Positions 2,751 to 63,870 of a stretch of 64,000 bases of DNA are shown here, piece by piece. The DNA is from Beroe ovata (Eukaryota; Ctenophora; Nuda; Beroida; Beroidae). The stretch covers positions 151,916-215,915 of the forward strand of contig CAMPET010000001.1 in NCBI GenBank assembly GCA_946803715.1. Reading direction: 5' to 3'. Numbering within the stretch: position 1 is the stretch's first letter; each line of letters begins with the position of its first letter. Both the position numbers and the translations under genes were made by a program. Under the pieces are notes generated by a model. It saw only the letters and a program-made list of their open reading frames with translations. It was not told the DNA's origin and ran no database searches.

Positions 2751-3806
2751 TCAAATCTGTGAAAATCTAGCGGAAGGATTATCTATGACAAGACCCTCAT
2801 CAGGGTACTGATTGTTACTTCTCATAGTGTTACTGTTGTATCCCGGGTTGTTATTGTCCGAACTGCTGTACCTATCGTCATCGTATTGGTTTCTGTAGTT
2901 ATCAGGACCGCGAGGATCGTAACTCTCCGGTCCCCGAGGATCGTAGCCACGATCAGGAGGGTATCCGGCGTTAGATCCCCGATCGGAAAACCCACTTCTG
3001 TCAGAGTACGCACTCCTGGGGTTGTAGTCGGGTCGAGCTTGGTCGTATTGGTCGCTATGGCGATCGTTGCTATAGCGATCTCTGTTGTCATCGCTATATC
3101 GGTTGTCGGGGTAGGGCTTAGCCTCGGGATATCGGTTGTTGGGTTCGTAGTAGTCCTTTCTGTATGAGCCGTTGTAGCTATCTGAGTATCCATCGTCGTT
3201 ATAGCGTCTGGGGAGGGAGGGGTTCAGCGATGGTCAAAACAATCGAAACAAATGAATTCCCTCCTGAATGAACAAATAACCGAAATCAAATGATGAAAAA
3301 CCCTGGAACCCACCTTGGTTGAGTGTTGGAGTGGTAGGATGGTCTGCTATTCTCCGATTCGTGCCGAGTTCTGAGCTCACTCAGTCTCATGTCCGTTGGT
3401 GGTGGGTAGTCGGGTCTGTGGTCGCCTGCCCGACTGTTCCTAGTGCTGTACTTCTCTGAGCTGTGGTCCGCAGCAACAACCACAGGGTTGCCTGGTAACA
3501 GAGGTTGTTACAGCAACCAAAACGAGAAAAATCGTTGCTTCAGCAACACAAATAGCCACAAAAAGTTCACTATTTCCTGAAGCAGTACCTAGTACAATTC
3601 AACATTAACTAATGCGGTACCTAACACAAGAGATCGGTTATCCCTTCCGCCATTGCTGGCTGATGTCTCCCTCGCTATGTACGCAGCTTGTTTCTTCTTG
3701 ATCTTATTCTGTTGGCTCGGCATAAGCTTCTTCTTGTAGATGAAGTAGTAGAATAGGAAGATGAATAGAATAATGAAGAGGAGTGCAAATATTCCCGTCA
3801 TCATAC
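2751..3806 (-). other. Giant receptor exons 75-77: membrane helix and Tyr-rich tail
   Basis: Exons 3621-3806, 3314-3491 and 2751-3207. Exon 75 encodes the single membrane helix (core GIFALLFIILFIFLFYYF), followed by a basic stop-transfer stretch YKKK and a lysine-rich juxtamembrane segment. Exons 76 and 77 encode the cytoplasmic tail. Exon 77 is low-complexity and holds about 20 tyrosines in about 150 residues, mostly in Asp/Asn/Arg/Pro contexts such as RYSDDNRDRYS, PDYNP and GYDPRGPESY. No enzymatic domain is visible. The many tyrosines suggest regulated phosphorylation and SH2/PTB docking, which is inference. Another frame of exon 77 is open and reads as a Thr-rich peptide, but the phase chain selects the Tyr-rich frame. 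Confidence 0.8.
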
Positions 3807-6800
3807 CTGCACACAAACAGAGGGTTAGAGATGCTGTGATTGGTTGCATAACTAGGATCAGTAGCAACAACATATCAGACCGTATCATGAGATTGAGACC
3901 ACCAAAAAGGAGAAGTTTTGAGAGTTCTTTTTTCGATGAAACTGACATTCTCCGGAGAGAGTGACCCACATTTTCTACTTGAAACTCACCGGCAAACCAA
4001 GTCCGTAGATACAACGGTTTTTTCCAAGTTCTAAACTGGACAGTCGCACTTTTGGGTGAACTACCGATATTGTTGGTGGCAACTATCGATAGCGAGTAAC
4101 TGGTATCATCGTTGAGGGTGGATATGGTGGCAGAGCGATCGTTTCGGTTTGGAATGACATAACTGCTGACACCTCGACGTGTGATCTGAGGATGTAAAGT
4201 TTTCGGTGAGATATGACGAGATAAATGATTGTCAAAAAAGTCCGAGACAGATTGAGAAATGCTTGAGCAAAATCTGCCGAGTTGTGTTATCATCGATATC
4301 AGATCTTTTTCCCCATACCTGACTATTTAGGTAGATAGTAAAGGTATCAATCCCCGTCAGTCCGTCATCTGTCAGTACCCACGTGACATGAATAGTATGC
4401 CAGTTCACCAGCTCCACCACGGGCGGCGCCATGATTTGCGGCACAGACTTCTGCCGAGTCTTGGCTCGAGTCCAAAACGTCTTATCCCCCTCACCCGCGT
4501 CAGTATACGCTGACACCGCGAACAGATACATCGTGTTCTCTGACAGTCCGGTCACATTCTTGTAATGGAATCCGTCCTGCCTGAGCTCAGTTCCGGCGAG
4601 GACCAGCGCCGCTTGCTGGTCGAAGCTCTTGTCATCACGGTAGTAGACTCGGTAACCACGAATAATACCGTTGGTGATACTCGGAGCGGACCACTTGACA
4701 AGGACTGCGTCACGACCACTGCCATCACAGTACGTGATCTCGGGGACTCCGGGCAGCCCTGAGGGAGGAGAAGAGGATGTTACCAATCTTAGATCGGTAG
4801 TCGGATGATAGTCATATAATTGTGTACAGAAGAATGTGAAAGATGAATAGATCTTCATCGGAAGGACCAAGACGTCAATAATAATACCGAATATCTGACA
4901 CCTGCCTATCCTCCAAACCTGTCCGACATTCAGCAAATCCGCTCCCATTACCTGTCTGAGTGGTGGTATAGGCAGCATCACTCCGCTCGCTAGCCATATC
5001 CTCGCTGTTCACCACCTCTATCCTGAACGAGTACCTCTCCCCTGGTACCAGCTCCGAGAGCCACACATTCTCAGCAGCAGAACCTGCACTAACACTCCCC
5101 GAGCTTTGCCTCTTCTTACGTGTGGAGGAAGAGGATACGCTGTAGTCGAAACTCTCCCGTTTGTAGAATATCTGAGGGAGAATGCTGTTTGTAGAATATC
5201 TGAAGGGAGTGACAATGTGGTGAAAATTGTGTTTGTACTATATCTATGTGTAGGTTGAGGAAGTAAAAATTGTCTTGGAGATGTCAGCCGAATGTGAAGT
5301 CTTGGAACTGTCAAGATGTACATAGGAATCGATAACAACTCAAGCATGGTGGCAATGATACTCACATTGAACTCGTTGATCAGCCCAGTTGTCGGCTCCC
5401 AATTGCTATCAAACTTGACAATAAGCTGGGTCGGATCAGATGTTGTCATGAACCCGGTAATGGAGGGAGTAGCGGGAGTGGAGGGGGGAGTCCGGATGCG
5501 GAGTGGTTCGGAGTAGAGACCTTCCCTCCCTCCGGTTATTGGAACCACCTGGGGGGAGGAGAGATTGAAAGGGGGAGGAATATACAGGATAGGGAGGAGA
5601 GAGAGGGGGGAGTGGAGAGGAAGAGGAGATGGGGAGAGAGGGGGAGAGAGGGGGAGTGGCCTTCCCTCCCTCCGGTTAGTTGGAACACCTGGGGGAGGAG
5701 GAATTGGGTGAGAGAGAATGGGGTGGGAGGGGAGAGTGGGGGAGAGGCATGAGGAGATAAATAGGGACAAGAGTGGACATATATTGCTGATTCCATGAGC
5801 TAAGAGTATTACACTGACAAGTTGCTAAATCGAAGCAGCAAAATCCAAAATCCAGCAAAAGTGCAATATAGTGTAAATGCTTGATTAAGCATAGATCGAA
5901 TCCGAGTACCTGTATGTCATACTCAGTGTAAGACTCGAGCAGAACCCCATCAGTAGGCAGTGTGTACGAGTTAGTGGTGACTGTGGCAAGAGCAGCACGT
6001 GCGCTGTTCGATGACACCTTCGTCTGGTATATCTGAAACAGGGAGTCAGTAAATTGTGATGAGATAAAGCAGAAAACCATGAATTTTGCCCAAAAATTTG
6101 TCATGACCACTCCCCGATAACACCATCCTCCTTGGATCCAAACTCGAGTATATGAATTGGTGCATTGTAAGATTTGGGAAGAAATATAAAAGGATAACTA
6201 ACTACCAACCTTGTAACTAGATGCTCCACCCAGAGGGTCCCATGATATGGACTTGTTATCATCACCAGCCCTCACATTAGTGATACTGGTCCGTGGGATG
6301 GAGTTGTAGTCCCTGGAATAGAGAGAAGATGGATGAGAAAAGGAATCCAAACTAGGAACTTGTGATAGTTTTGGGATTGCTCATTCAATAAGACCAAACT
6401 CCAATCTATCAACTAAAAAAACTACCCCTAACGAAAAAACAAGTTCACAATATTTTCACCAATCCTCGTCACTCACCTAAAGTCCACAGTTCCACTCTCC
6501 AAACTAGACTGACTGGCCTCTATCTTATTCTGCAACACCACTGAGAAGGTGTATGACTTCATCTCCAGATTTGACCACGTGTAGGGGTTGTTGGAAGTGG
6601 AGACCCGAGTAGTGGTCGCCGTTTCAACCTCAGTCCTCGTGATAATGTACTTCGTCACCGCAATGGAGTCGTACGATTTCACCCAGATTGTAGCAGAGTA
6701 ACTGTTGGAGTTGCTGATGTCTCGACTGATGCTGGAGACCCATGGGGTTGGTGGTTTTGTGGGCGGACCCTCGACCTCAAGATAGGTCGACACAGAGCTC

Positions 6801-9800
6801 TGACCGTAGGGGTTGCTTGCAAAGCATGCAAAAGTGCCGGTATCAGCGGTTGTCGTTCCATCGATGAGCAAAGAACCAGTTTCCCTCAAAACCATCCGCG
6901 ATCCGTCAATTTTCACCGGAAAATCGTTGAATGTCCACATGTAATTGATGGGATCGTACCCGATTGCGTTACACTCTAACTCGACAGAACTCTTACTACT
7001 CGTCGTGACTCTTTCCGCTGGTCTAGTTATCATGTATGGTTTATTCGTCTTGGTAATGTACGCAAAAGCACTGGCAGACCCGAATATGTTCGTCCCGTAA
7101 CATTCATACCGTCCCAAGTGCACCTCCTGCGTGCTGGCAATGTTCAGTTGGCGGGAAAACTTGTCCACCTCGATAATCGTGACATCTCCGCCAACGGAAA
7201 CCGGGGCTCCGTCCTTCAGGAACTGAACAACACACGGATTGGTCGCCACAGCTTGAGGGTTGCACCGGCAAATGAGATAACTCGGGTCGCCGAACTCGTT
7301 GACCTTGAAATCAACTGGAGGGATGACAATGCTGGGTGGTTCGACCACAATGAGATCGACACTCCCCCAGATCGTTTTGTAGTACTCGTTCGTAACCTCG
7401 CACACGTACGTGCCGTTGTCCCACGTCTGCGCGTACGGGATCACGAGGGCGTGTTCCTCGTCTTCAAACGCCCGAGCGGGGAGCCCGTTGAACGGCTCGT
7501 GTCCGTGATCCTTCCTGCTCCACTTGTACTGAATGGGGGGCGGGGTACCCGTTACTTTACACGGGAATCGTACTGTGCTGTACTGAGCGGCAAACATAGC
7601 TCCGCCCGGAGAGGGGTGCTCCACAAACTCTAGATCTTCCTCTACTTTGAGATATATCGCGTGTTGCGCACTCCCTGCCTTGTTCGTTGCTATCGCTTGC
7701 CACACCCCCTCATCCCCAGCTTGGGTTGGGTCTATCCGCAGTGTCCGTGAATCTACCAACTGTATCCGATTCCCGAGTTGGACACCCTCGCCATTGAACG
7801 TCCAGACAATGGACGGAACTGGATGGCCAGCTGGCGTCCCCAGATCTATTTCCGTCTGATTTCCGATATATCCAATCATGAAGATGTCCGCGTTGCCGAA
7901 CGAGGGCCGTGTGGAGACCTGTAGTTTGAAATCCGCAGGGTTGTCGCCTTCCCGCGTGTTTGTTATGCAGGAGTAGTCGCCGTCAGCGTTCTCGTCGATA
8001 AGGTCGAATGTGAGAAGACGACCACCAAATGAAAGTTTCTGCTCCATCTCAACTGTTGAGGGGGAGGAGAGGGGTAAGATATACTGATGATGACAGGGTT
8101 TAACGACAGGATACAAAACATGGATGAAGCGGGTGCAAATTTGTAAATTGCAAGGAGAATTACAAGGAGAATTGCAAGGAGAATTGCAAGGAGAATTACA
8201 AGGAGAATTGCATGTGAAGAGACCTCAAAATCTCAAGAGAGTTTTCTCCTGGTAAAAGGAGTTTTCTCATGATCACAACCAACCTGAGAAGGGGCTCCCA
8301 TTGTGTGTCCACCTGTAGGTCGGTGTATCGGGGAAACTGGACACAATACAGGCAATAGTGACGGGCGTGTGCTGTGCTACCGTCATATCTCCGGGCTGGA
8401 CGAGCCAGGACGGGTTTCTGAAGATATCGTCAGAGTTGCCCGAGTCCGCTATTCTGACTTGGTAGTCAGGGTTGTAGTTTGTAAACGTGCCTTTTTCGTT
8501 AGTAACCTGCGAAATATATACGAATTATATAGTTAGGGGAACAGTGGCTTTGTAGCATTTCACGCGCAGATTGAAGATCATAATGTTCATGACAAAATGA
8601 TGTAATTCCAGGCAAGAGGTGATATCCATGATCTTACGTACCTGACATCTGTACCTCCCACTCTGATCAGGATCAGCAAAGGGAAACACCAAATCTCCGT
8701 ACTGGTTCACAGCTGGGCTCAGCCCATCAGCATTATCGGTTATTGGGTCATCATCGAAATACCAGGTGGTTTTGGGGTAGGGCCATCCATCGGGCCCGTT
8801 ACACTTCAACATAAATACATCTCCCTCGGTCAGCCCACTTGTGGAGCAATCCTGCATTGAGTTGCCGGCTTCCTTGAGGCAAGTTATGGGCAGAAAGTTA
8901 TCATCCAGATACTGAACTTGGAGTGAAACTTTGGGAGAGTAGATGGTTCCATAGTCATTCTTTGCCACGCAGTAGTAATCCCCTTTATCCGCCTTGGTAA
9001 CCGATGGTATGGTGAGAGTTGAGGTGGTCGGGGTCAGCCTGGTAATCCCCTTGAACCATGTCACACTTTCCGGGTCCGGCACACCCGTTGCTACACACTT
9101 CATGCTCACTGCCACACCCTCCTTCCTAATCCCACCGACGTAGGGTGCGGTTTGGAATCCCAGGTAGTAGTCCTTGACGATCAGCTCGATACTCGACTCC
9201 TCCATTTGATCGATAGCTCCATGTTCCGGGATGACTTGGATCTTGTAGAATGTCGCATCACTCTTATCGGGATTCTTGATGTACATGTTGCCATAGTAAC
9301 CGATCATGTAATACGAATTTCCCACGGTCCCGTTATGAAGTCCATCAAAAGTTCCCGATCCAGTTCGCTTATACCAGGTGATCTCCTTTGGGAACGGTTC
9401 CCCAGTCACCTCAACATCGAACACAAAGCCACTCCGGTCACTATTCGCATTGACTGTGTAGTATAGGTTATTTATCGTGTTTAGCCACTTTATGTTGGGT
9501 GGTACTCTACTGATAACGTGAACCATGATGACTGTCTCATCTTTGCCCGAAACTGTGGCAACGGACGCTTTGTACTGTCCCTGGAATAGTTTACTAATCC
9601 CGTGAACCAGCAGTTGACGGCGTTCTCGGGCGAACGAAACCACGTTGTCATACCCAGGATCTATGGTGTTCAATTCCTTGGCTTCAGTCCAATTCGTCTT
9701 CCCGAAATCCAGCCTGGACCAGATGATGTTGTGGGCGCGTATCTGGTACCTGTACATCACCTCAATGTTCACCTCCAAGTTATCGCCCGATACCACTGTG

Positions 9801-12800
9801 ATGGTGGAGTGACCATGGTATGGGTACACAAAGGGACGAGCCAGCCACTCTACCACTCCCAGATTGAGCGAAGCCTCGGCCGTCCTGAGGACAGAATCAG
9901 GGTTGCTCTGAGCAACGCACGTCCATTCCCCTTCATCTGAGTGAGAAACGGACAGGATTTTCAGTGATCCTGATGCTTCCACGCTATAGGGGAGATCTGG
10001 TCCATTCTCAGTGTATTCCACAGTTTGATCACCAATCGTTCTTTTCCAGGAAACTTTAGGAGAGGGTTTTCCAGTCACCTCACACGGCAGCGAGTACACA
10101 CTGCCGACAAGCGCCACCAGAGTGCCGTGATACTGCGGTATGGTGGCGGTAGGGTACATATACGCGTCTATTATCTGCAGAACGGTACTGGTAGTGGCAC
10201 TTCCGGCTTCAGTTTCGATTGTGAAGCGGTAATTACCCGCACTGGCCGATTCAACACTGATTATCCTCAGCGAAGTTCCATCGTTACCAAACTCGATATT
10301 CCCAGATTCCGTGAGTTGGATACCATTCCGCGTCCATGAGCACATCGATTTCTCGATCACGTTTTGGTACGTGACATCAACTGCGATGACAACCTCCTTA
10401 CCTGGGACTCCGTAGAAGACAGAATCAACCAAGCCCACAGTTGGGGGTGAAATGATCTCCAGATAAGCTGATTTTGTCTGGATACTCCCCTTCAGATTGT
10501 CCGCTTTACACCTATACTCCCCCTGAGAGTCCACCTTGACATTGGACACAACCAGTTCACTCTCAACCCCTCGACTTGTGAACTTGTTGGTGTACTCTGA
10601 TGCCGACATATCCGCCGAGCCCCTCGACCAAAGCACATTCGGATCGGGAATTCCGTACGCCACACACACGAACGTGACCGTCGATCCGAGAATAGCAATC
10701 TGGTCAACTGGTGGCTGAACGATAATCGCTTCCTGGACGTCTTCCGCTGCATAGGTCGTCACATAAATATCTTTTTCATCCTGGATATTATTGGCACCTT
10801 GCCAGGTAGTAAGCAAAGCTGTCACGGTGTACTGCTGAGTTCCCACGCTGGACGGAACAGCGGGACTCAACACGCTCGTGTCCCCGGAAATCGGGCTACC
10901 GTCCAGTTTCCAGGTGATTATCTGAGAGTTTGGATCACCGGACGTGATATGGACGCTAAGCTGATACGATGATCCGGTCCCGAGGAGCAGCCTCCGATGT
11001 GTGGGGTACTGGGTGATCTTGATAGGTGTCAGGACGGTGAGAGTTGCTGACACCTCATCACTTCCTCCACTTCCACTCACGCTACACATGTACAGCCCCA
11101 TGTCCGTGGACACCGTGCCGGTGATTGTCAGCTCTTGTCGTGAGGTTGAGAGTTGGTACCGGGATCGAATTGAGGAATCGAGTTCGAGTACGTTAACACC
11201 GTTCTTCGTCCAGGTTATGAGGCTTTGATCGTCGCTCACCGCACATGAAAACCTGGCACTTTGCCCACGGAACACCGTTTGATCACCGCTAGCACCGGTT
11301 ATTGACACCACATTGACACCAGCGTTAGCCAGCTCCAACTCGGCGCTCTTAACGTACTTCCCCTCACTATACGAGGCTGTAACTTCATACTGCCCGAGAT
11401 CTGATGTCTGAACATCGGAAATGGTGAGGGTCACTTCCTTAACCGCTTCCCCTCCGTCGTCCTTTATACTGTCAGATACGTCGTAGTGACCGCCGTCACT
11501 CTCAGGGAAATGAACCTGACGGTTGTCATGGAAACTGTCAGAAACGGAAAATGGGAAGACGGAAATCGGCAGAAATTATTGGATGTTTGGCATGCTTTCA
11601 AGTTTGAAGCAGTGGAAACATATCAGATCGAATATAAAATTGAACTTATTTGTGAGGCAAACATACTCCACTTCGGGTCCACTCCACTTTAGCGTTTGTT
11701 GGCTGCACCTTAACCGTGAAAACAGCCACCCCACCCATGGTGGCTTCAACTTGGGTGGCAGTCGTTGTGATCTTTATCCTTTCGTTCACCTGGCAATTCA
11801 GAATGCTGAATAGTGCCAGGCACGATATCTTCATGAAAACCACGCAAACATACAAGATCCTCAACTTATCAGTTTCCAAATATCAAGTTATTTTCTATAA
11901 ATCACTGACTTGAAACAAGTAAAGCCGCTATTCAAACATTAGACTCACCGTGATTGTGAATGATTCACTGAGTGGCGTAGCATCGCCACCGCTACTCCCT
12001 CTACAGATGTAGCCGCCACTATCTCCCACTTCCGCCGCGTAGATCACGAGGGAGGTGGCAGTCACGTAGAACCGTCCCTCGTTCTGCAGCTGTGAGTTGT
12101 TGGCAAAGAGGAAGGAGATGGAGGGCGAGGGAGTGCCTGGGGGAGAGTGGGGGACTGGAGGAAAACCGGCATATCCTGATTCAACTTGATAAAGAGGTTC
12201 GATTGGTTGGGTCAGTATACACAGACAGAGGCAAACACACACACACACACACACACACATACACACACANNNNNNNNNNNNNNNNNNNNNNNNNNNNNNN
12301 NNNNNNNNNNNNNACACACACACACACACACACACACACAGATATACACACACGCCACACATATACCTGACACATCGCAAGGGATGGTAACAGTACTCCC
12401 AGAGAATACAGTGGTGTCAGTTGGACGGGTGGTGAATTGCAGTGCATCTGCCACTCTTTTCACTGACACCTGGAGTTCGGTGGTGGCAGTCGTGCCGTCC
12501 ACCTTGTTCACCGAGACACGGTAAGTGTCAGCGTCAGAGAGCTGGACATCACGGATTAGGAGCTCTTGACCTGCATGGGAGCGGAAAACACAGTGTGAAA
12601 CTTTGTGAGTTACTTGTAGTAAAGGTTTATGGATCTTAGTTATTTTCAACCGTTGAGCTGCAAATGCAATAATGGAACTATATAGTTGAAATTTTTTGAA
12701 ACTCTGAAGATCTATAATTATTGCTGAAAACGTACTACATCAAACTTACCCGAGTTTTGTGAGTGGGGTTATATTTAAGAGTCGCATTGTACCTATATTG

Positions 12801-15800: not shown

Positions 15801-18324
15801 AGTGTCTCTGGGTCTTCAATTAACTATCTCATGTGTCAATACTATTGACTCATGGGACTCAATACTCTCTGCCACATACCTGTTGTAATGGGGTATGTCC
15901 CCTTATACCAAGAAACTTGGTCCAGGGTAAACGCCCCGGACTCAATTCCAAAGTAGACTGTGATGGTGTCACTCACGTCCCAAACTGACTTGGTTTGAGA
16001 TACACTCGGTGTTGCACCTGACTCTTCTGCAGGGATAGGGATTGTTAGACGTTGACACCACTTTGTACATCAACGCGTTGACACCACTTATCTCTTGACA
16101 CCATTTCACCCTTGACACCACCTCACCCTTGCACCACTAGGTATGTCCTTGACACCACTTCACCCTTTGACACCACATTCACCTGTTCTAGCGAGGGTTA
16201 TAGAAGCACAACAATTGGCACATGAACTGCTGCAGTCAGTACACCCTGAACACAACTCCTCGCCCCCTCTAACTCTGGTAAAGAGAGTGTTTGGATTGAA
16301 AAACGTGATCAGATCAAAGTAGAAATCAGTGGTCATTGATACCAGGTTAAGGAGTCAATCAGATGTATTGATCGTGCGAAATTAATGTAATTTCGAATCT
16401 ATTCATGACCTATTTCTCCTCTGACCTCATCTAAAATAGCACACCCCGATTCTCAGTTCCCAGTCCCCGCCTGACCCACCTGCAGATATAGTTTGTGTAA
16501 TCGGAACTCTGAGTCAGCGCGATGTTGAGTTGAGCTCCCTTCCCTCCAACTCTGAACCGAGTATCGTCATCGGATATGGGGTTACTCAAATCACCCTGCG
16601 ATGGAGAGATAATGGGGGCATGGAGGTGAATGAAGAATTGGGGGTATTGATTAGAAGCGATGGAAAGATTAGGGGGCCTTTAGACTATTTAGGAGGTAAT
16701 GAAATGATGAGAAAAGGGGTGATTATGTCTTAGAAAGCTGAACATCTCACCTTGTACCAAGTTATCTCCTGGAGTGTTGGATATTGGGCGGTGTCAATGG
16801 TGACACTCAACACCGGGTAGTCGCCGTACCGTGCACGTACTTCCGATGACACCGGCTCCACTGTTATCCCAGTACCACCTGGTGAGGGAAAGAGTTGGCG
16901 AGGGGAAGAGATGGTGAGAGAAAGAGATGGTGAGAGAAAGAGATGGTGAGGGAAAGAGATGGTGATGGAAAGAGATGGTGAGAGAGGGGTCAGGTGATGG
17001 AGAGGGAAAGAGATGGTGAGAGAGGGGATGGTGAGGGAAAGAGATGGTGAGGGAAAGAGATGGTGAGGGAAAGAGATGGCGAGGAGTATATATTGCATCT
17101 GCAGTGACTGAATCGGGGGCAAGGTAAAAGGGAGAAAGAGAGAAGAGAGTAGCGATGTGAGGTGAGGGCTTCATGCTGAGAGAATTCAACAGTGGGAGCC
17201 CCTGAGTCACGGGATCAACACCTAAATGGACAATTTAATGGGGCTATATGGCAGGTACATGGGAGGCTTTGGATTTGATGCAGGGAGTTATAGAGAACTT
17301 GAAGTTACTCAAGTGAGTCAATAAGCGACCTAGTGAGGAAAAGGCTTAGGTTTTTCTATGGAGGGTAGAAGTGGCTGAAGTAGGTATAATCTTCACAAAT
17401 ACTGCGATATTTAATTGAGCTTAAAGACTGAAGTGTAATGAGGGGTAAACAGAGGGCATCAAAATGATTTCTTGACAAGTGATTTTAATGAATAAGCATT
17501 GTTTGATTGTCAACTCACCTCGCACAAATGATGCTATTAATAGTAACACTAAAATCATTCCTATCTCTCCCCTAAGTTACATCATGATTCGTCTCTGATA
17601 GGAGGTAGACGATAAGAAAAGTGATGGAAATGGGAGTGGACGCAACAAAAATGCAAGGAAATTATTCAAAACGTTGAATATGTGGAAAAAACTGCTGCAG
17701 TCCGAAACAAGTATGTATGATTATTGGCACCAACTCAGCTCTTATCACATTTCACCTTTGAATACATAAGTTTAAAATACGGTTAAAAATTAACAAAATA
17801 TCATAGACATAATATGGAACCAGAATGGAACTCAGAAACGGCTACGAAGTGGCTCAACGAAATATGACTAACCTAGATTTTAGGAACAAGAATTTTGAAA
17901 ACAAGAATCAAGGAAAAAGGCAAGAATCGAAGAATCAAAATGAATTATCAAAGAACAATTAGTATACCTCAGTAGGTCAGATTCAGCTAATACAAGGAGG
18001 AGTAAAGCTGAGCAACAAATTCAGAGTGTTCTGAGCAAGAAGCATAGTGTATAGATCATCAAGAGTCCCTTACATCACCGTGTATACATTGAGTGTGTAC
18101 GTCTTAGAGGGCAGAGATCACAAGCACAATGAGAAACAGAGAGACATTATTCAGTATAAGTACACATAGACAGCCACAGAAAGATACATAATGCTCACAC
18201 ACACACACACACACACACACACCTCACACCNAATAAATTCCCGACAACTAGATCATTCGCGACTCGGCTGGTCGTAGATATTCTCGTTTAACAAAGTAAT
18301 ACACACACACACACACACACACAC

Positions 18325-18355
<31 letters not shown>

Positions 18356-33300: not shown

Positions 33301-36300
33301 GTCATTAATCCACCACTTCGCACAAAAGTGCATTTTTTCCTGAAGAAACCCTCACTCACCTGTAAAATCCAGCATCACTCTCATCCACTTGCTCCACTCT
33401 GAGCTGGTCACGTGACACGAATACTCTCTCCCCATTGGTCAGTGTGGTGTAGTTGTGACTCCACGAATGGGTGGTCTCACTATCCCGTGGCTCATCCACA
33501 ACAACCTTGGTGGGGATAAATTTTAGGAATAGAATTTCTGTGTCAGAGGACTGGTCTGCACGGATCCCATCGGTTTCGATTCCCTGTTTAACATGCCGTA
33601 CAGCAAGTTTGCCGCCAAATCTTCATGATCAATTATCAATTCCCTCTCTTTGGATCAAGGTTAATTTAATGGCTTATTTCGCATTTCGGTATACCATCTC
33701 AGAAAAGGATATCGAGATAGAACACATGATTAGCAGTTTATATATCACGAATATAGCACGTCATGTATTCAGGTACTAACCGTGAATGTAGCGAAAGCAC
33801 CGAGATCCACGGTCTGTTTGAGTGGTGATACTGGATACACTGTAGCTGGTTCTGGGGGAACGAATCCTTCTTAAGGGAATCTAGATTTCAACAAATAGAC
33901 TGGGTCAAGTAACACCTCTCATAGAAAACAGGGCTCCGAAAAATACACGCGGAAATTTACCATAAGATGCGACACGTAGGGTTATGGTGGTGGTTGCTAT
34001 GTTGTGATCCGGATTAGAGACAAACACGCAGTACCTTCCACTGTCAGATGCCTAAGGATAGATTTCGAATTAGGGTAGAGGAGTGAAAACATTTTCGATC
34101 CATTGTTTCTAAGTAGTATGAATGAAAAAACCATCAAATGTAGATAGGAGACTTCTTACCTTAACATAGGGAATCACAAGTTGTTGCATGCTGTCTTGAA
34201 ATGATGAGGAGAAATTGATTTTTCTGCCATCTTCTCTTGTCCACGCAATCTAGGCAGCCATATGCATGTCACATTGTCACACTGTCACATTGAAAATTGC
34301 TTGGTTTTGTAGCGCGCGAACATAAAAATCTGATCAACGCGCGACGACAAATTATGGGCCTCGACGCGAAATAAAAATATGACAGGAATGTCGACCAAAC
34401 AACAACGATCGAGTGTCGGCCATCATGGACAAATCTCCACTCCCTCAGTCACCACCGATCATCCATCTTTTATCTTTTTATGAACAGTTCGATATGACTT
34501 AACAGAGGGCCAGGATATATCAATAATCAACTCTGCATGCTATATCAATCAACTGAAACGCGCGAAAATATATCCACTGTATATACGAGTACACGCGCGC
34601 ATTAATATTCGATAACGACAGGATAGTTTTCACCAAATTTTCTCGGCGCGCGTTACTCAAAGCCATCTTGCAACAATGCAATTGGAACATGTCAACATGG
34701 GTCACCTNACTCCACGAATGGGTGGTCTCACTATCCCGTGGCTCATCCACAACAACCTTGGTGGGGATAAATTTTAGGAATAGAATTTCTGTGTCAGAGG
34801 ACTGGTCTGCACGGATCCCATCGGTTTCGATTCCCTGTTTAACATGCCGTACAGCAAGTTTGCCGCCAAATCTTCATGATCAATTATCAATTCCCTCTCT
34901 TTGGATCAAGGTTAATTTAATGGCTTATTTCGCATTTCGGTATACCATCTCAGAAAAGGATATCGAGATAGAACACATGATTAGCAGTTTATATATCACG
35001 AATATAGCACGTCATGTATTCAGGTACTAACCGTGAATGTAGCGAAAGCACCGAGATCCACGGTCTGTTTGAGTGGTGATACTGGATACACTGTAGCTGG
35101 TTCTGGGGGAACGAATCCTTCTTAAGGGAATCTAGATTTCAACAAATAGACTGGGTCAAGTAACACCTCTCATAGAAAACAGGGCTCCGAAAAATACACG
35201 CGGAAATTTACCATAAGATGCGACACGTAGGGTTATGGTGGTGGTTGCTATGTTGTGATCCGGATTAGAGACAAACACGCAGTACCTTCCACTGTCAGAT
35301 GCCTAAGGATAGATTTCGAATTAGGGTAGAGGAGTGAAAACATTTTCGATCCATTGTTTCTAAGTAGTATGAATGAAAAAACCATCAAATGTAGATAGGA
35401 GACTTCTTACCTTAACATAGGGAATCACAAGTTGTTGCATGCTGTCTTGAAATGATGAGGAGAAATTGATTTTTCTGCCATCTTCTCTTGTCCACGCAAT
35501 CTAGGCAGCCATATGCATGTCACATTGTCACACTGTCACATTGAAAATTGCTTGGTTTTGTAGCGCGCGAACATAAAAATCTGATCAACGCGCGACGACA
35601 AATTATGGGCCTCGACGCGAAATAAAAATATGACAGGAATGTCGACCAAACAACAACGATCGAGTGTCGGCCATCATGGACAAATCTCCACTCCCTCAGT
35701 CACCACCGATCATCCATCTTTTATCTTTTTATGAACAGTTCGATATGACTTAACAGAGGGCCAGGATATATCAATAATCAACTCTGCATGCTATATCAAT
35801 CAACTGAAACGCGCGAAAATATATCCACTGTATATACGAGTACACGCGCGCATTAATATTCGATAACGACAGGATAGTTTTCACCAAATTTTCTCGGCGC
35901 GCGTTACTCAAAGCCATCTTGCAACAATGCAATTGGAACATGTCAACATGGGTCACCTCTTTAGGAAAACAATAGTTTACCTTGGTGCTACGTGAAGAAA
36001 GGTAACTATCTGCCTGAACACGAATCTGAAGTGTTACCCTGTCACCCACAGTACTGTAGACAGGGTCCACTGTAGCTGTAACTACGGGTGGTCCTGAAAT
36101 ACGGGTCACAAAAATGAACGATGTTCATAACTGATTCCGTTGCATTGATTCAGGCTTCTTTCCAAAAAACGTTGGCGTACAAAAACAATCTTCATATCAT
36201 CGAAAAGTTTGTGATTGTCAACATACCGATCACACGTAGGTACTTGGTGTATTTGTGTGATCCCCTGTTGTTTGTCGCCTCACACCCATAACCCCCTGCA

Positions 36301-39300
36301 TCGCTTGACTCCACTGATTCTATGACATGCCTCCATCTGCGATTATTGATAGGTCGAGCTCAATCAGGATGTTCCATGAATTTAAATCCTCCCTATTTTC
36401 AAGTATCACTAGCCATGTGATCCTTGCAGGAATAGCGAATTAATTGCAGAATTACTAATTAGTGCGAATTTTAACTACCTACTCTTTTCGCATAACACAA
36501 TATGAAAGTGTAATGAATCAGGGGAACTAACCCGGTAGCAACAATTTTCCCAGCGATTGACCATGTTATAGCTGGAGTTGGATTACCTTCTACATAGCAC
36601 TCCAGTGTCACCTGTTAGAGTGAGTGTAGAGGGAAGAAAACCGGGATAGCAAGACGTGGGAATGAAGCAATGTTGCTATGTAACGAATGTTGCTATGTGA
36701 CGAATGTTGCTATGTAACGAATGTTGCTATGTAGCGAGTTGTTGTGCATGTTTAGAATTCCAATGACATTCAAATGTGAGGATTGAAGTCACCGGGAAGC
36801 AAAATAGCAATTCGATGGGGGCACAATCAATGGGACACACCAATGCCAAAAAGATCCGAGAGTTGACAGTTGCAAAAGTTACATAGGGCCGTGTTACCTG
36901 TTGTCCGACAAGAATTGTGTCTGGAGCTACAACTCTCAACACAGTAGGTTGAGTGAAGACATCACTGATCGACACAGAGAAGTAGAGTTTGTTGGATGCC
37001 CCATTCACATTCTCCCCCACCACGCTGTATAGCCCTCTATCCCACTATGGAGAAATTGGAGGAGGAGAAGATTTTGGAACGAAAATTTGACGCGTCAATA
37101 GATCATTGGAGAAAGTATGATAATAGAGAAATATGGCAGAGGAAGTTTGGATCTTTTGACGAGAATAACAACTGTTGTTTAGAGTTGCAATGGATGGTCA
37201 CGTGTAGCGAACATGTCCCACTATCATACTCACAGATTGCACATTGTTTATGATGAGAGTCCGTCCACCGTCCACCAGCATGTACTTAGAACTAGACTCA
37301 ATCCTGAACTCCCCTGAACCTGAGTGGTTACCATGGTAACTATGGGTATGGTAACCTTGGTGAATATCACCATTGTAATTATTTGTCATGGTCAATTGAG
37401 ATTTACCTAGCGTATATAATTGAGGTAGCATGCATGCCGAAGCACGAAATTCTTCCTCTTTCAGAGAAATTCTTACCTCAATGTCCTACGAACATAAAGG
37501 CAATCTACGGAGTGATTGTAAAATGACATTCCTCAATTTCACTCACTCCCCATAACTCCCCATAACTCCCCCGACTCCCTTTTTACCTGATGACCTGGAT
37601 AAACTAGACAAGCTATATTCCCCTAGAACAACGCTCTCTACCGTTACCACTGAGCGACACATACACGAGGAACTTTCGGCAATTATACCATATAAGGCGA
37701 TGTGTTTGAATAACACACATATATTATTCCTACATAGGTTGTGATTATATAAATCAACTGCAGCTTATAGTGTCACGATAATAATCATCGATCGATTGAT
37801 ATTGGAATATCGATGACGAAATGTTAAATTATGTCGAGGTTACAATAGGAGACCTGTTTTTTGTCTTTTAATGAATGCCAAAATATGATCAATCATGCCA
37901 TTTTGAGACAGCATTGAACTTTGTGGATGCCACTTAGACGTACCATGCCCTTGTCAAAGATGGCTGAGGTTAGATGTTTCAACTACGACTGGGTATAGAG
38001 ATTTCTCAGTTCTGATAGGTAACTCCCACATCTCTTGCAGGTTATTAATGTGTAGTAAGTTATTAATATGAGTGCCACCTGTCCTATAAATAGTAACAAG
38101 CCACCCTCCGTGCTGATTGATATCACAGAATAGAGACCGTGAGGATTCATCGTGACAATTTCGTGAATTTCCACAGAAAAACGTGTTCGGAGGAAATTAA
38201 TAACAGTCACAAGGTGTGTGCGTGCGCAGTAGGGGATCACAGCTGAATGTACAATATGTACAGTGTACATATTGTACACATGTTAGTGTACATATTGTAC
38301 ACATGATACCTACTTATTGACATCCAGTGATATCTTAAATCTATCAGATGCAAAATTCCTAGTTTCCCCCTAAATTCCCCCTGCCTACAATCCACATTCC
38401 CTCATACCCACATTCCCCCAGCCCACATTCCCCCAGCCCACATTCACCCAGCCTACATACACCCTGCCCACATTCTCCCNNNNNNNNNNNNNNNNNNNNN
38501 NNNNNNNNNNNNNNNNNNNNNNNNNNNCCCAGCCCACATTCCCCCTGCCCACATTCCCCAGCCCACATTGCCCTGCCCACATTGCCCCTCAACTCACCAT
38601 CTCTCATCCAAATCACATCAGTGAGTGGGGGTGAGGATTCAACGCTCAGAGTTACCACAAATCCAGGATAAACCAATGGGAACAGAGATGTTGCGTTGGT
38701 GAGCAAGGGCGTTGCTATGGAAAGAGATAAATGTAGCTAACAGCAACGGGCAACCAATCACGTTGCTATGGCAACCAATCATTGCTCGGCGTCTGACTTA
38801 CCCAGGACGTTGATGTCGAAACTATCCGATGCCGTGATCTCTCTTCCATTCACTCGCACTTCTGCTGCGCAGGTAAACTCACGCTAAACAGGGAATTCCG
38901 AATAAGGTTGAAACTAGGGAACTTTGGAATAAGGACCCTTAGTTGAAGAAGTTGCACCAAACACATGTGACATAAGAAACAGTGAAACATGTAAGACTCA
39001 CAGAAGTTGATAGCCTAATCACATTGAAAACCCTATAAGCACGTAAAGATACATAAAATACGTGATGCACGCAAGCAACACATGACGTGACAATCATATA
39101 GGTAACCTGGTGTGAGAGGCGGGTGTCGCGAATGTTCAGGTAGGACGGGTTAGTTCCCAGAATCTGTACTCCCGGTACTATGACATCATTCGGTAACACC
39201 TGAACATGGAATCTGAGGGTTGGAAAGCAGATGGACAATCAATTTCCATTCAATCCGGAGGCAAATATTATGATCAATAAGATCTCGATTTGTCGCACTT

Positions 39301-41755
39301 GATTCAATCAGACATGACCAGATTTGCATTTAAATGTATTTTAAGGGTCCTGGACTTCTCAGGGTTTTCCTTTGTATCAATATAATTCAAAACTTCTTCT
39401 CATCCCTAACCGAAGTTTCTCTCCTCTACTACTCACCACTTTGTGCGATGTCCATATTAGCGATGCTCCACTTGACACCACACAAGTCATTAGCACACTG
39501 TCACCCGTTGACACCAGGTCAGGAGGTGATGGTGTCAGTGAGACGGTCGGTGAAGCTGAGGAGGTGTCAGCAATTAAGATGGACCAAGAACCAACTGATG
39601 AAAGTTCAGGTGAATGCGACAAGTTGATTCGTAGCCCTTGGGCCTTGGCCCTTGAATGCATTTTGTGGGAGAGCCCAAAACTGGTCTCACACTGGTCTCA
39701 AACTGGTCTCAAACTGATCTCACTATTTCACCTGTAAAAACTCTCTTACCGATCACGATGAGTTTTGTTGAGTGAGAGGTACATCCGGCCGCGTTTGTCA
39801 CATATGTCACGTAGTCTCCACTGTCAGATTCAAGTGCCTGAAAGGTGAGGGGTGAAGAGTGAGGAGTGAGGAGTGAGGAATTACAGACGGTCGAAGATTT
39901 GGGTGATCGGGAAGAGGAGTTTGGACTTTGATTATAGAGACCGGGGTTACAAAACACTCATTTGTGATGATAGTACTATTATATTAGCGTGGATAAATCC
40001 AGTTCTTGACGCAATCCAGGTCATCGCACAATTATCAGGGCTTACCTTTTGTATGAAGAGTGATGTTTTGTCCAAAGATAAGTTCAAGTGATATGGTACC
40101 TTGTCCTTGAACCACTTTACATCAAACTGTCTGCAAGATTGGAATTGGAAATCATATTTAGATATTTTGAACATTTTGAAGCCAGTGTAATTCCGTCTTT
40201 AAAAACTTCCCTTGTTCCACTTACGAGGGATGAGCAGTAATGTTCAGGTTTAATTCCACAGTTTCTCCAACCAGACCCTCTATCGAACCCGAACTAGAAA
40301 CATGAGGCATACCTGAGAAGGAAAAGGGCTCAATATAGAGATATATATGAGGAATCCTCGGATGCGTTCATTAAAACTTCAATAGACACAAAATTCATTG
40401 ATCAAAATACATAAGAATATGGGTGATTTGAGAAGACTTTTATTTGCTATTCAGTACTCACGGAATACATTCAGCTGTATAGAACTGGTGCTAGATCTGC
40501 TTCTCTCTGCGTCCATCACATTGACAAGATACTGCCCACTGTCACTTGGCAACGTTCCAGAAATAGTGAGAGACGTGCTGTCAGCGGAATAGTGGTACCT
40601 ACGGATCATCTTAGTTATCAAGTTATCAAGAGGTATCGATGGTAACTGTTCTATCACCGGAAATTCTGATACCAACCGTGAGTTATCCCATGTCCCATCC
40701 TGCTTCAGCCATGAAATTGTGCCTGGTTTGATAAGCCCTGAGAAGTGAGGTGTACTGAAATCTTATATAGCTTGCTGTGCACCATCAGAGCCATCTGCCA
40801 ATGTTTCAACAGCAAATGTGAATTACCATTCATTATAGCTGTTGAAAGTGTTATAGCTTCCCCACAGCACAAAGTATTGGCGACAGGAGCGGCGGGAAGT
40901 GCTCTTACCATTCCTGAAGAAGCATCAATACTTGATGGTCTTGGGGAAACATTGGAATGTGGTAAATATTCAATATAAACATGTTATATTGAAGGATTGA
41001 TTAGTTTCCATGAATAGATGTCCATTATTATGCATGTAACATAACATTTCATTACATGGATGGATGAATATGTCAAAGAAACTCAACTATTATAAACAAC
41101 CATGGTCTTTTACTACCTAATACAAGGAGAGTGACAGAAGTTTCCCTGTCAAGATAGCCTCCGTCATTGCGTCTGCCCCTTACATAGACAGTGTAGTCTC
41201 CAGAATACACAGTTTTGACACTGAATAGGTAACAAAGGAGTTGGCACTAATTGCAACAAGGTGTCTCATTTAGGGAACATCAGATCACAGATATACTAAT
41301 TCATCAACCAAAAGGAGCATCATTCACCTATTAAAAACAAGTGATGCAATATTGTTTTTCAAATCTAGACTGTGGCTTTGTGGAACTGAACCACCAACCT
41401 GGATAAGATATTTTGAGGTTTATCATTGAGCAGTAAGCAATAACTTGGAAAACGGATTTTATATGTGGCAGGTTTCAAGTATGTTATTATTGTTACCCTG
41501 GCCCACTGGATATCTTCCTCTGAAACAGTCACAGTTTTGCTGAAGCTCAGTGCAACTTGTAGTTTGGCACTGTAGCTCTCCTCCAAAACAACAATTTCAT
41601 GGAGTAGAGGTTTGATACTGAGATTCTGACCATCTGAGGGCAGATATGAACAGTACCCAAAAGAATTGATACACAAAGACATAAAATACTATTATTTCAA
41701 TACCTGATATGTGGATTGTGGCAAATTGAAGAATAAATAGGAACCAAAGTGACAT
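2751..41755 (-). CDS. Giant transmembrane Ig/FN3 receptor, 77 exons, 4,900 aa
   Basis: One gene read from signal peptide (ATG at 41755-41753) to TGA at 2751-2753. Chaining 77 exons, each with AG/GT borders and matching phases, gives 14,703 nt with no stop. Order: cleavable signal peptide (residues about 1-17), about 41 Ig-like domains (about 20-4107), five FN3 domains (about 4108-4627), one membrane helix, then a tail of about 250 residues rich in Tyr, Asp, Asn and Arg. Ig repeats show the core Trp (for example VTWYK) and the D-x-G-x-Y motif. The design is that of a cell-surface adhesion or recognition receptor, similar in principle to Dscam or Sidekick but much longer. I do not recognise a named orthologue. 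Three places are less certain: the 4.4-kb intron 16879-21238, the duplicated contig ends at 30455-35958, and exon 41399-41633. A split into two genes is possible but the phases argue against it. Exons are listed in the block entries. Confidence 0.82.
3990..6312 (-). other. Giant receptor exons 69-74: FN3 domains 2-5
   Basis: Exons 6210-6312, 5910-6032, 5366-5548, 4952-5171, 4319-4758 and 3990-4185. Together with the end of exon 68 they encode five fibronectin type III domains. The usual landmarks are visible: the B-strand Trp (SISWDPLGG, VLVKWSAPS, IHVTWVL), the C-strand Tyr (YRVYYRDD), the L-x-P-x-x-x-Y motif (SELVPGERYSFRIEV, TGLSENTMYLFAVSA, STLNDDTSYSLSIVA). FN3-3 holds a Ser-rich loop with a dibasic cluster, RKKR. 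These domains sit between the Ig array and the membrane, as in Dscam, Robo and Sidekick. Confidence 0.85.
5516..5760. repeat. Purine-rich tract with duplicated exon edge
   Basis: An about 45-bp segment at 5516-5560 (the acceptor and first codons of giant-gene exon 71) is repeated with changes at 5659-5703. Between and beyond the copies the plus strand is almost pure G and A. The copies share CTTCCCTCCCTCCGGTTA. Confidence 0.75.
6477..11515 (-). other. Giant receptor exons 66-68: large exons with Ig27-Ig41 and FN3-1
   Basis: Exons 8642-11515 (2,874 nt), 8284-8506 and 6477-8052 (1,576 nt). The first encodes the end of Ig27 and all or most of nine further Ig domains without an intron. Exon 68 carries the end of Ig37, Ig38-Ig41 and the first FN3 domain (starting GPPTKPPTPW). 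Canonical Cys-bearing Ig domains are common here, for example ARFSCAVS with GLYMCSV, VTFVCVAYG with GEYRCKADN, and VELECNAIG with GTFACFASN. They are interspersed with domains lacking both Cys, such as the one with SSYQLSVHI and YTVTALL. A donor at 8642 (CAG|GTACGT) and an acceptor at 8506 join RYRCQ to VTNEKG, a normal Ig end. Confidence 0.9.
8151..8210 (+). repeat. 12-bp tandem repeat
   Basis: Five copies of CAAGGAGAATTR lie in the intron between giant-gene exons 67 and 68. They have no coding role. Confidence 0.9.
12231..12352. repeat. CA microsatellite around an assembly gap
   Basis: AC repeats flank 44 Ns at 12270-12313, in the intron between giant-gene exons 63 and 64. Peptides such as CVCVCV predicted here are translated microsatellite. 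Confidence 0.95.
13205..13242. repeat. Perfect 38-bp palindrome
   Basis: Two 19-nt arms meet without spacer at TCA|TGA (arm start GAAATTGAGAGTC). It starts 10 nt inside the intron after giant-gene exon 61. Confidence 0.9.
16183..16268 (-). other. Cys-rich exon 52 inside Ig20
   Basis: An 86-nt exon with phase-matching borders adds GEELCSGCTDCSSSCANCC to the F-G region of Ig20, between NYICR and ASITLART. Seven of 19 residues are Cys, unlike anything else in the protein. The other two frames fail to keep the chain open. Confidence 0.65.
16881..17082. repeat. GA-rich minisatellite
   Basis: Imperfect tandem copies of AGAGATGGTGAGRGAA, with spacing that slips. They follow directly on exon 50 of the giant gene and carry no gene. 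Confidence 0.85.
18197..18362. repeat. CA microsatellites flanking a single-N join
   Basis: AC runs at 18197-18222 and 18301-18360 lie on either side of an N at 18231. Intronic. Confidence 0.9.
19785..19875 (+). repeat. 19-bp tandem repeat
   Basis: About four to five copies of AGATTGCAGAGGCACTGAA, one of them shortened, in the long intron of the giant gene. Confidence 0.9.
19990..20635. repeat. Duplicated segment across the N at 20306
   Basis: 19990-20305 and 20307-20635 start alike (AATGGGGAGGAGAGAAATTT) and end alike (ACCACGTACAGAATGAAATA), with many substitutions and indels between. This fits two alleles of one intron segment joined head to tail by the assembler. Confidence 0.75.
20885..21215 (+). 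repeat. TTGACACCAC-type imperfect repeat cluster
   Basis: Irregular copies of CTACTTGACACCACTTTCTT alternate with CTGACACTACTCTGCTCTAA. Intronic. The short core recurs elsewhere in the window. Confidence 0.75.
21239..28115 (-). other. Giant receptor exons 27-49: Ig10 (second half) to Ig19
   Basis: Exons 27978-28115, 27771-27850, 27511-27597, 27278-27383, 27040-27143, 26858-26950, 26569-26687, 26374-26402, 25400-25498, 25117-25310, 24757-25030, 24333-24669, 24091-24203, 23763-23911, 23529-23655, 23306-23410, 22742-22870, 22447-22556, 22131-22276, 21925-21998, 21693-21775, 21464-21577 and 21239-21326. Each joins the next in phase. Core Trp and F-strand motifs recur: ISWKH with DEGLYQCHV, IIWQKD with DEGEYRCKI, ILWYKEHD with DVGIYQAVV, AEWYHYDG with EAGEYTLKL. 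Most of these domains lack the B-strand Cys. The 29-nt exon 34 (26374-26402) supplies only the linker PIPSVLSHP, and without it the phase would break. Confidence 0.85.
25759..26262 (+). CDS. A20/AN1 zinc-finger protein (ZFAND5/6-like), nested
   Basis: Complete, intronless, 167 residues. An N-terminal A20 finger has Cys at 7, 12, 24 and 27 (CRNSGCSFYGSEQFDGLCSGC). A C-terminal AN1 finger has Cys108, Cys111, Cys122, Cys124, Cys129, His132, His138 and Cys140. A Ser/Thr-rich linker with basic patches (KKRK) joins them. Length and order match ZFAND5/ZFAND6 and plant SAP proteins, which bind ubiquitin chains through A20 and act in stress-linked protein degradation. The gene lies wholly inside the 875-bp intron 25499-26373 of the giant Ig gene, on the opposite strand, so it needs its own promoter. 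No AATAAA is evident just downstream. It is the only complete single-exon gene in the window, which could mean an old retrocopy, though intron-poor coding regions also occur in this family. Confidence 0.93.
   Translation: MTDGASCRNSGCSFYGSEQFDGLCSGCFSKRQGSRDAPQVSLGTSICSVKKRKSVEISSDEVAHLNPKTETQNDPTTAGVKDETPQVDTSTSAAEGGTSKKRKVVNRCHVCNKKVGLLGFDCRCGGLFCSLHRADTEHGCQFDYKSVQRAELAEKNPKVVGEKVSKI
28116..30717 (-). other. Intron 26 of the giant gene, filled by tandem repeats
   Basis: Exon 26 (30718-30826) ends ISSG in phase 1 and exon 27 continues GRYRILNKGR, completing one Ig domain. So the 2.6 kb between them is intron. It consists mostly of the 545-bp tandem array. Confidence 0.85.
28391..30715. repeat. 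545-bp tandem repeat, about 4.3 copies
   Basis: The marker TAAAGAGTGTTTCT recurs at 28391, 28935, 29479, 30024 and 30569, spacings of 544-545 bp. Copies 3 and 4 (29479-30023, 30024-30568) look nearly identical and the first is more diverged. On the minus strand three copies hold an open frame of 129 codons (29030-29419, 29575-29964, 30120-30509). It has no recognisable domain and is most simply explained by low divergence among copies. Confidence 0.92.
30455..33460. repeat. 1.5-kb duplication across the N at 31957 (likely unmerged contig ends)
   Basis: 30455-31956 and 31958-33460 carry the same sequence with very few differences (for example near 31600 versus 33105). Both include giant-gene exons 22-26 and part of exon 21. 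The duplication abuts a single N exactly, and the second copy runs on into sequence that continues the gene. I take the second set of exons (32221-32329, 32454-32576, 32719-32825, 32996-33080, 33163-33208) as copies, not extra domains. Confidence 0.85.
30718..36093 (-). other. Giant receptor exons 17-26: Ig7 to Ig10 (first half)
   Basis: Chosen path: 35981-36093, 35411-35500, 35212-35302, 35032-35102, 33360-33505, 31660-31705, 31493-31577, 31216-31322, 30951-31073 and 30718-30826. Second copies of exons 18-20 lie at 34160-34249, 33961-34051 and 33781-33851. Only the copy of exon 21 at 33360-33505 is whole; 31856-31956 and 34709-34756 are cut by the Ns. Joined, Ig7 reads IAWTREDG then SGRYCVFVSN, Ig8 has THSWSHNYTT then DAGFYRFYYNN, and Ig9 is canonical (AVFSCLVSG, VTWYRG, SRYRCVASNSAG). 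Confidence 0.75.
33458..35958. repeat. 1.25-kb duplication across the N at 34708 (likely unmerged contig ends)
   Basis: 33458-34707 and 34709-35958 match at a constant offset of 1,251, apparently without change. The join is again a single N. The left copy is the right end of the contig that begins at 31958, so that contig (31958-34707) is covered on both sides by its neighbours. Confidence 0.85.
36670..36738 (+). repeat. 17-bp tandem repeat
   Basis: Four copies of ATGTTGCTATGTAACGA lie between giant-gene exons 15 and 14. A rearranged relic of the 545-bp repeat follows at about 36770-36850 (shared GGATTGAAGTC and GGGAAGCAAAAT). Confidence 0.85.
38245..38305. repeat. TGTACA-rich inverted repeats
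   Basis: Alternating GTACAATATGTAC and GTACATATTGTAC units form mutual inverted repeats in the intron between giant-gene exons 12 and 13. Confidence 0.7.
38396..38590. repeat. 15-bp minisatellite with a gap
   Basis: Copies of CCCACATTCCCCCAG, with variants, flank 48 Ns at 38480-38527, next to giant-gene exon 12. Gly/Val-rich peptides predicted here are repeat. Confidence 0.9.

Positions 41756-58273: not shown

Positions 58274-63870
<5,597 letters not shown>

What the first reader, a model, noticed from the sequence alone, without database searches (positions are those of the whole stretch)
2751..41755. A 4,900-residue Ig/FN3 transmembrane receptor in one 39-kb gene
Seventy-seven exons join in phase from a signal peptide to a stop, predicting about 41 Ig-like domains, five FN3 domains, one membrane helix and a tail. 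Dscam and Sidekick have up to 13 Ig domains; arrays of 40 or more are otherwise known mainly from secreted hemicentin or intracellular titin-like proteins. A membrane-anchored array of this length is unusual and may be a new receptor class.
Basis: partly seen in the sequence, partly recalled or inferred. Interest (0 to 1): 0.78.

Follow-up and report, generated by a model that had tools for sequence, protein, structure and literature searches.

The report
Two adjacent ctenophore Ig-domain genes
What looked like one giant 4,900-residue receptor gene is, most likely, two neighbouring comb-jelly genes plus a stretch the assembly counted twice, and one of the two is a conserved membrane-anchored adhesion-type protein of about 3,000 residues.

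Summary
The reported exons are real: a minus-strand chain from 41755 to 2751 reads through in frame (84 exons, 4,920 aa). It is most likely not one gene. (1) 31957-34708, between single-N joints, repeats its flanks (98.5% and 100%): an assembly duplicate worth about 239 aa. (2) The last 28 exons belong to gene B (29 exons, 17558 to 2751, 2,995 aa); its signal-peptide exon, 17519-17558, lies inside the supposed 4.36-kb intron. A Mnemiopsis leidyi predicted protein (2,933 aa; 1,624 of 2,889 aligned residues identical) starts with a signal peptide at the same place and ends alike, so the genome is most likely a ctenophore's. B has about 22 Ig and five FN3 domains, one membrane helix and a tail ending SQI. 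(3) Upstream gene A (41755-21239, about 50 exons, about 18 Ig) has its own signal peptide; no 3' end and no orthologue were found. Bivalve predicted proteins already show 35-44 Ig domains with a membrane helix, so length alone defines no new class. B is a ctenophore variant of a known kind, the Ig/FN3 adhesion receptor. No transcripts were available; function is inferred.

The parts
2751..17558 (-). Gene B: 29 coding exons, 2,995 aa: signal peptide, about 22 Ig, 5 FN3, one membrane helix, 247-aa tail
   Evidence: Own gene finder plus hand-set first exon and tail; end-to-end match to Mnemiopsis P0001, 1,624 of 2,889 aligned residues identical. The 30-nt exon 16245-16274 is uncertain
17519..17558 (-). 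Gene B exon 1: signal peptide MILVLLLIASFVR|G, GTGAGT donor in phase 1
   Evidence: Only ATG + hydrophobic core + GTRAGT phase-1 exon in the window, both strands (the scan misses A's own start exon, whose donor is GTATTG); the Mnemiopsis protein starts with a signal peptide at the same place
17594..17604 (-). Strong acceptor-like site (acctcctatcag|A) 36 nt upstream of B's ATG, possible spliced-leader acceptor
   Evidence: PWM score 6.1 against a median of 6.5 for 77 modelled acceptors; 0.05 sites this good expected in 80 nt. The best site before A's ATG scores only 3.3, expectation 0.42. The role is inference
6477..11515 (-). Long exons of B (8642-11515, 8284-8506, 6477-8052) coding most of the central and C-terminal Ig domains and the first FN3
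   Evidence: Open frames of 1016 and 583 aa; Pfam I-set
3990..6756 (-). Stretch whose exons code the five FN3 domains of B
   Evidence: Own FN3 HMM 5; Pfam fn3 4 stretches and FN3_DSCAM-DSCAML_C; alignment to Mnemiopsis
5109..5120 (-). Codons for RKKR in the third FN3 domain, furin-like R-x-K-R
   Evidence: Read from the sequence; RQKR at the corresponding place in Mnemiopsis. Motif recalled, cleavage inferred
3621..3806 (-). Exon with the core of the membrane helix of B and the start of the tail
   Evidence: Hydropathy maximum 2.81 at residue 2727; helix and following KKK conserved
2751..3491 (-). Last two exons: D/R/Y/N-rich tail ending NPSARFSQI-stop
   Evidence: Exons 3314-3491 and 2751-3207; C-terminal motif shared with Mnemiopsis
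21239..41755 (-). Gene A: signal peptide at 41755, about 50 exons and 1,783 aa after removing the duplicate, about 18 Ig; 3' end not identified
   Evidence: Own gene finder on the de-duplicated stretch plus hand curation; Pfam I-set 13 stretches on the raw model
31957..34708 (.). Assembly duplicate: contig between two single-N joints that equals both neighbouring contig ends
   Evidence: 31958-33460 is 98.5% identical to 30455-31956 and 33458-34707 is 100% identical to 34709-35958; the middle contig spells the join of the flanks
16879..21238 (-).
   Evidence: 4,360 bp against median introns of 177 (B) and 150 (A); joints

Best explanation
Two neighbouring ctenophore genes lie on the minus strand. 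Downstream gene B (17558 to 2751) encodes a type I membrane protein: a signal peptide, a rod of about 22 Ig domains on a stalk of five FN3 domains, one membrane helix and a 247-residue tail. Most likely it works as a cell-cell (or cell-matrix) adhesion receptor. The Ig rod would bind a partner on the neighbouring cell, the FN3 stalk would set the distance from the membrane, a furin-type protease may cut the third FN3 domain and leave two non-covalently held halves, and the tail would dock to a PDZ scaffold through its last residues, SQI. Upstream gene A (41755 to 21239 or beyond) encodes a separate Ig-array protein with its own signal peptide, fast-changing or lineage-specific. Shown: the anatomy, the conservation of B between two ctenophores and the assembly duplicate. 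Strongly supported but not shown by transcripts: that A and B are separate genes. Inferred: adhesion, furin cleavage, PDZ docking.
For: The Mnemiopsis protein P0001 (ACHWQZ_G001366) aligns to B from first to last residue, starts with a signal peptide at the same place and is B's length, not A+B's; one search admitted proteins up to about 5,240 aa and listed no longer close relative among the best 120 of 248. B's signal-peptide exon is the only one of its kind the scan found in the window on either strand, and a strong acceptor lies 36 nt upstream of its ATG, as expected if B gets a spliced leader, which was found on 56% of Hormiphora Iso-Seq reads (PMC8527503, section read). Searches with A gave no hit above 31% identity and none named as a ctenophore's (11 hits, 6 of them unnamed; best 120 of 175). 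In a hand partition, all 22 Ig and 5 FN3 domains align to Mnemiopsis at 41-73% identity. The best 60 of 142 solved structures matched by the P0001 profile include Robo, contactin, Sidekick, DCC, neurofascin and Dscam, cell-surface adhesion or guidance receptors; the top hit is titin. The helix, the R-x-K-R site and the ARFSQI end are conserved.
Against: No transcript was mapped. The Mnemiopsis protein is itself a predicted protein. The signal-peptide exon alone could be chance: 10.2% of 500 simulated stretches of this length held at least one. No good terminal exon for A was found, and A's last exon ends on a strong GTGAGT donor. Signal peptide and helix were judged by eye and hydropathy, with no dedicated predictor. 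The Hormiphora leader was not found in this genome, and A's ATG has no strong acceptor before it. Two assembly joints lie between A and B. The searches with A are a weak test for a fused protein if A changes fast.
Confidence: 0.78

Rival explanations
1. One gene with one long product: A's last exon is spliced to 16878 over a 4.36-kb intron, giving a membrane protein with about 40 Ig domains.
For: The chain stays open and in frame with good splice sites on both sides of the gap; A's last exon ends on a GTGAGT donor and no terminal exon for A was found; membrane-anchored arrays of this size exist in bivalves.
Against: The Mnemiopsis counterpart starts with a signal peptide exactly where B does; B has its own signal-peptide exon; the gap is about 25 times the median intron; no long close relative was listed or 32 (best 120 of 248 and of 175).
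Confidence: 0.07
2. One locus with two promoters: a short form (B) and a rarer long form that splices A to B and skips the signal-peptide exon.
For: A's last donor and B's second exon are both phase 1, so both forms would be open; A lacks a visible 3' end.
Against: No transcript evidence, and no long form listed.
Confidence: 0.08
3. Separate genes (compatible with the best explanation), but A as assembled is broken or incomplete: its 3' end is missing or scrambled at the joints 20306 and 18231.
For: No terminal exon found; single-N joints at 18231 and 20306; 84% overlap-like repeat around 20306; two other joints in the same scaffold are demonstrably wrong.
Against: A's 50-exon model is open over 1,783 aa.
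Confidence: 0.3
4. B is a separate gene but works as a matrix scaffold of the hemicentin type and not as a receptor: the ectodomain is shed at the R-x-K-R site and acts as a secreted Ig rod.
For: By their labels, hemicentins make up most of the 120 hits listed (21-24% identity; labels not counted one by one); furin-like site conserved.
Against: No VWA, EGF or G2F/nidogen domain in the Pfam scan; membrane helix and C-terminal end of the tail conserved.
Confidence: 0.15

Closest known systems
Mnemiopsis leidyi hypothetical protein ACHWQZ_G001366 (P0001)
   Same: Orthologue-like over the whole of B: signal peptide, same Ig and FN3 order, helix, R-x-K-R site, ARFSQI end
   Different: 56% identity over aligned positions; shorter tail; named only 'hypothetical protein' in the record
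Sidekick, contactin, Robo, DCC, Dscam (bilaterian Ig/FN3 receptors)
   Same: Ig array followed by FN3 domains on the cell surface (recalled); sequence similarity of domains; a hit to FN3_DSCAM-DSCAML_C at 39.8 against a cut-off of 39 bits
   Different: Those have at most about 10 Ig domains by recall; B has about 22 and a different FN3 number
Hemicentin-1/2
   Same: Long I-set arrays; most of the labels listed after P0001
   Different: No VWA, EGF or G2F domain in A or B; B has a membrane helix; 21-24% identity
Bivalve 'hemicentin-1-like' membrane proteins (P0105 Mytilus trossulus, P0242/P0245/P0246/P0248 Crassostrea virginica)
   Same: Hydrophobic N-terminus, 35-44 Ig domains by my HMM, C-terminal membrane helix and tail (three of the five looked at)
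   Different: No FN3 domain by my HMM; different tail; about 1.6 to 2 times B's Ig number; 22-23% identity

Membership tests
Ig/FN3 transmembrane adhesion receptors (IgCAM, broad) | Signal peptide, N-terminal Ig array, membrane-proximal FN3 domains, one membrane helix, cytoplasmic tail | tested here: met
   (signal peptide and helix by hydropathy, no dedicated predictor)
Ig/FN3 transmembrane adhesion receptors (IgCAM, broad) | Binds a partner on another cell | not testable with these tools
   Needs an experiment
Hemicentin | N-terminal VWA domain and C-terminal EGF and G2F/nidogen domains (recalled) | tested here: not met
   None among the Pfam families listed for B (24) or A (16) at E up to 1
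Hemicentin | Secreted, no membrane helix | tested here: not met
   Conserved helix at about 2718-2748 of B
Dscam | Ten Ig and six FN3 domains, the tenth Ig between FN3-4 and FN3-5 (recalled) | tested here: not met
   About 22 Ig then five contiguous FN3
Dscam | DSCAM-type C-terminal FN3 | tested here: inconclusive
   PF25059 at 39.8 bits, cut-off 39
Sidekick | Six Ig and thirteen FN3 domains (recalled) | tested here: not met
Sidekick | C-terminal PDZ ligand (recalled) | tested here: inconclusive
   SQI end fits class I S/T-x-hydrophobic (recalled) and is conserved; binding not testable
   In frame, but the Mnemiopsis protein starts inside and part of the span is an assembly duplicate; no transcripts available

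The most novel reading that the evidence does not exclude
The locus has two promoters. The conserved 22-Ig receptor B is the short form, and an upstream array without a detected orthologue (A, about 18 Ig) can be spliced onto it to give a membrane receptor of about 40 Ig domains. A comb jelly would then lengthen and diversify an adhesion receptor by adding a fast-changing outer half.
Probability: 0.08. Interest if true: 0.6.

Novelty: new variant of a known kind. Interest (0 to 1): 0.35.

Why it matters
[quoted passage not shown] It also gives a concrete target to stain and perturb in Mnemiopsis. The practical lesson is that single-N joints in this assembly can hide doubled contig ends that inflate domain counts, and that in-frame joins between Ig modules are poor evidence for one gene.

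Tried and rejected
A first hidden-Markov gene finder with weak intron penalties gave 406 mostly spurious exons and was dropped. The roughly four ~544-bp tandem units at 28372-30694 were considered as extra exons and rejected: no Ig-like exon seen in their translations, and the finder skips them. For gene A, hand curation changed the finder's output: exon 41117-41220 was lengthened and 40827-40913 added; 29378-29431 and 37944-37963, 37547-37586, 25755-25799 were dropped, the last because it lies antisense to the zinc-finger frame; 38463-38714 was shortened to 38598-38714. In one search the script lists nine exons and 256 aa for the duplicate; one of the nine (34706-34756) lies almost wholly outside it, so I count eight exons, 718 nt, about 239 aa. 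Terminal exons for A in 17.4-21.2 kb were listed; the most hydrophobic (acceptor 20186, score 4.1, TLGLERLLFLLKLLLSIIS-stop) is a weak candidate only. An AlphaFold model of exon 8642-11515 with two sequences was poor (mean pLDDT 39.2) and not used. A 33-base pattern from the Hormiphora spliced leader plus GT, up to 3 mismatches, had no match in this genome, so spliced-leader use at B is inference. tRNA and Rfam (gathering) scans of the window found nothing. Literature searches for ctenophore Ig receptors (2 papers; 31, 15 of 36 listed; 33, 12 of 20 listed; 34, 7) showed no title on this protein; those papers were not opened. In the Mnemiopsis immune-genome paper PMC11797021 the four passages found for immunoglobulin/fibronectin do not mention it (passages only); the Beroe ovata genome paper PMC11184263 has no occurrence of immunoglobulin, Ig-like or cell adhesion in its main text (term counts and passages).

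Results against my reading: the signal-peptide exon alone has a 10.2% chance level; A's 3' end is missing; A's ATG has no strong acceptor before it; the Mnemiopsis protein is a prediction.

Full report
What was checked. I rebuilt the gene with a simple exon-chain finder trained on the two long open frames. Pfam finds long I-set arrays in both halves.

Assembly duplicate. Within the span there are single-N joints at 18231, 20306, 31957 and 34708, and two longer N runs. The contig between 31957 and 34708 consists of a 98.5% copy of 30455-31956 followed by a 100% copy of 34709-35958. It spells exactly the join of the two outer contigs (overlap ACT). So about 2.75 kb, eight exons and about 239 residues of the raw chain, are counted twice (exon list). 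This pattern fits scaffolding that inserts one N at an unmerged overlap (recalled, not tested).

The break. Between exons 21239-21326 and 16751-16878 lie 4,360 bp, against median introns of 150 (A) and 177 (B). Inside, at 17519-17558, is an ATG followed by MILVLLLIASFVR and a GTGAGT donor in phase 1, which joins exon 16878 in frame. It is the only such exon found on either strand of the window; simulated sequence of this length holds at least one in 10.2% of 500 cases. The scan demands a GTRAGT donor and so misses A's own start exon (donor GTATTG). A strong acceptor lies 36 nt upstream of B's ATG (score 6.1, expectation 0.05 in 80 nt); before A's ATG the best is 3.3, expectation 0.42.

The orthologue. 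A search with B gave 248 proteins (120 listed). The best is Mnemiopsis leidyi ACHWQZ_G001366, 2,933 aa, E 0, 54% identity over the whole query; the next, hemicentins, have 21-24%. A full alignment gives 1,624 identities in 2,889 aligned positions, from MFIFCYLTCLLFKYGAG against MILVLLLIASFVRGGTG at the start to IDNPSAARFSQI against IDNPS-ARFSQI at the end. The genome is therefore most likely a ctenophore's. Which species was not established; it is 77.8 Mb in 534 contigs.

Anatomy of B. 29 exons, 2,995 aa. My Ig HMM, seeded from B and Mnemiopsis, finds 21 domains in each; one more, at residues 900-986, I added by eye. Five FN3 domains follow, then a helix and a 247-residue D/R/Y/N-rich tail. 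Several Ig domains lack the usual cysteine pair. In a hand partition, Ig and FN3 domain identities to Mnemiopsis run from 41% to 73%. An R-x-K-R site in FN3-3 and the C-terminal SQI are shared; their reading as a furin site and a class I PDZ ligand is from recall. The last 485 residues (FN3-4 onward) match only this locus in the genome (5 matches, all here). A whole-B search of the genome did not complete.

Gene A. After removing the duplicate and curating by hand, A has 50 exons and 1,783 aa, still open at the 3' end, with 18 Ig rows, 15 of them over threshold and longer than 35 aa. It has its own signal-peptide start at 41755. In its genome it has 35 matches: 34 to itself and one, at 25%, to B. 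Searches with A gave 11 proteins in one length class (6 unnamed, none above 31% identity or 33% coverage) and 175 (120 listed, none above 25%) in a longer class. No ctenophore is named among those listed. A is therefore fast-evolving, lineage-specific, or its relatives are missing from the database. No convincing 3' exon was found.

Is a 40-Ig membrane protein unheard of? Of 249 proteins held, 11 had at least 12 Ig domains and a hydrophobic 19-mer of at least 2.1 beyond residue 60. Five of these (one Mytilus, four Crassostrea isoforms) have 35-44 Ig domains and the helix near the C end; the three that I printed show a signal-peptide-like start, a clear C-terminal helix and a tail. They are annotated hemicentin-1-like. 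They are predicted proteins too.

Context. In Hormiphora californensis, 2,357 genes lie nested in introns of 1,654 hosts, and the spliced leader was found on 56% of Iso-Seq reads (PMC8527503; passages and one section read). This fits the antisense A20/AN1 zinc-finger frame at 25759-26262 inside A and the acceptor before B's ATG. A pattern from the Hormiphora leader was not found here.

Verdict. Most likely two genes and an assembly duplicate, not one giant receptor. Gene B is a conserved, unusually long Ig/FN3 membrane protein of ctenophores and most likely an adhesion receptor. Function is inferred from architecture alone.

Noticed in passing
window 25759-26262, + strand: Intronless frame of 167 aa with an A20-like and an AN1-like zinc finger (ZFAND5/6-like by recall), antisense inside gene A between exons 26374-26432 and 25400-25498: probably a nested gene.
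   Followed up: partly
window 28372-30694: About four tandem units of roughly 544 bp, 91-95% alike, apparently non-coding, in a 2.6-kb intron of gene A.
   Followed up: partly
window 19986-20633: 84% repeat lying across the single-N joint 20306; looks like another unmerged overlap of contig ends.
   Followed up: no
window about 300-1480, + strand: Exons of a charged protein reminiscent of RBM26/27 (recalled); no Pfam match for the two frames tested.
   Followed up: no
window 63283-63648, - strand: Protein-kinase-like fragment, 27.3 bits, below the cut-off of 31.7.
   Followed up: no
G000 contigs C176 (3.5-46.8 kb), C67, C154, C47; C399; C201: Other long runs of I-set exons in the same genome. 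Three C399 matches mirror C176 matches in score and query range, and C201 matches resemble those at C1:744-748 kb, as retained duplicate contigs would.
   Followed up: no
P0105, P0242, P0245, P0246, P0248: Bivalve 'hemicentin-1-like' predicted proteins have a C-terminal membrane helix and tail, so the name probably misleads.
   Followed up: partly
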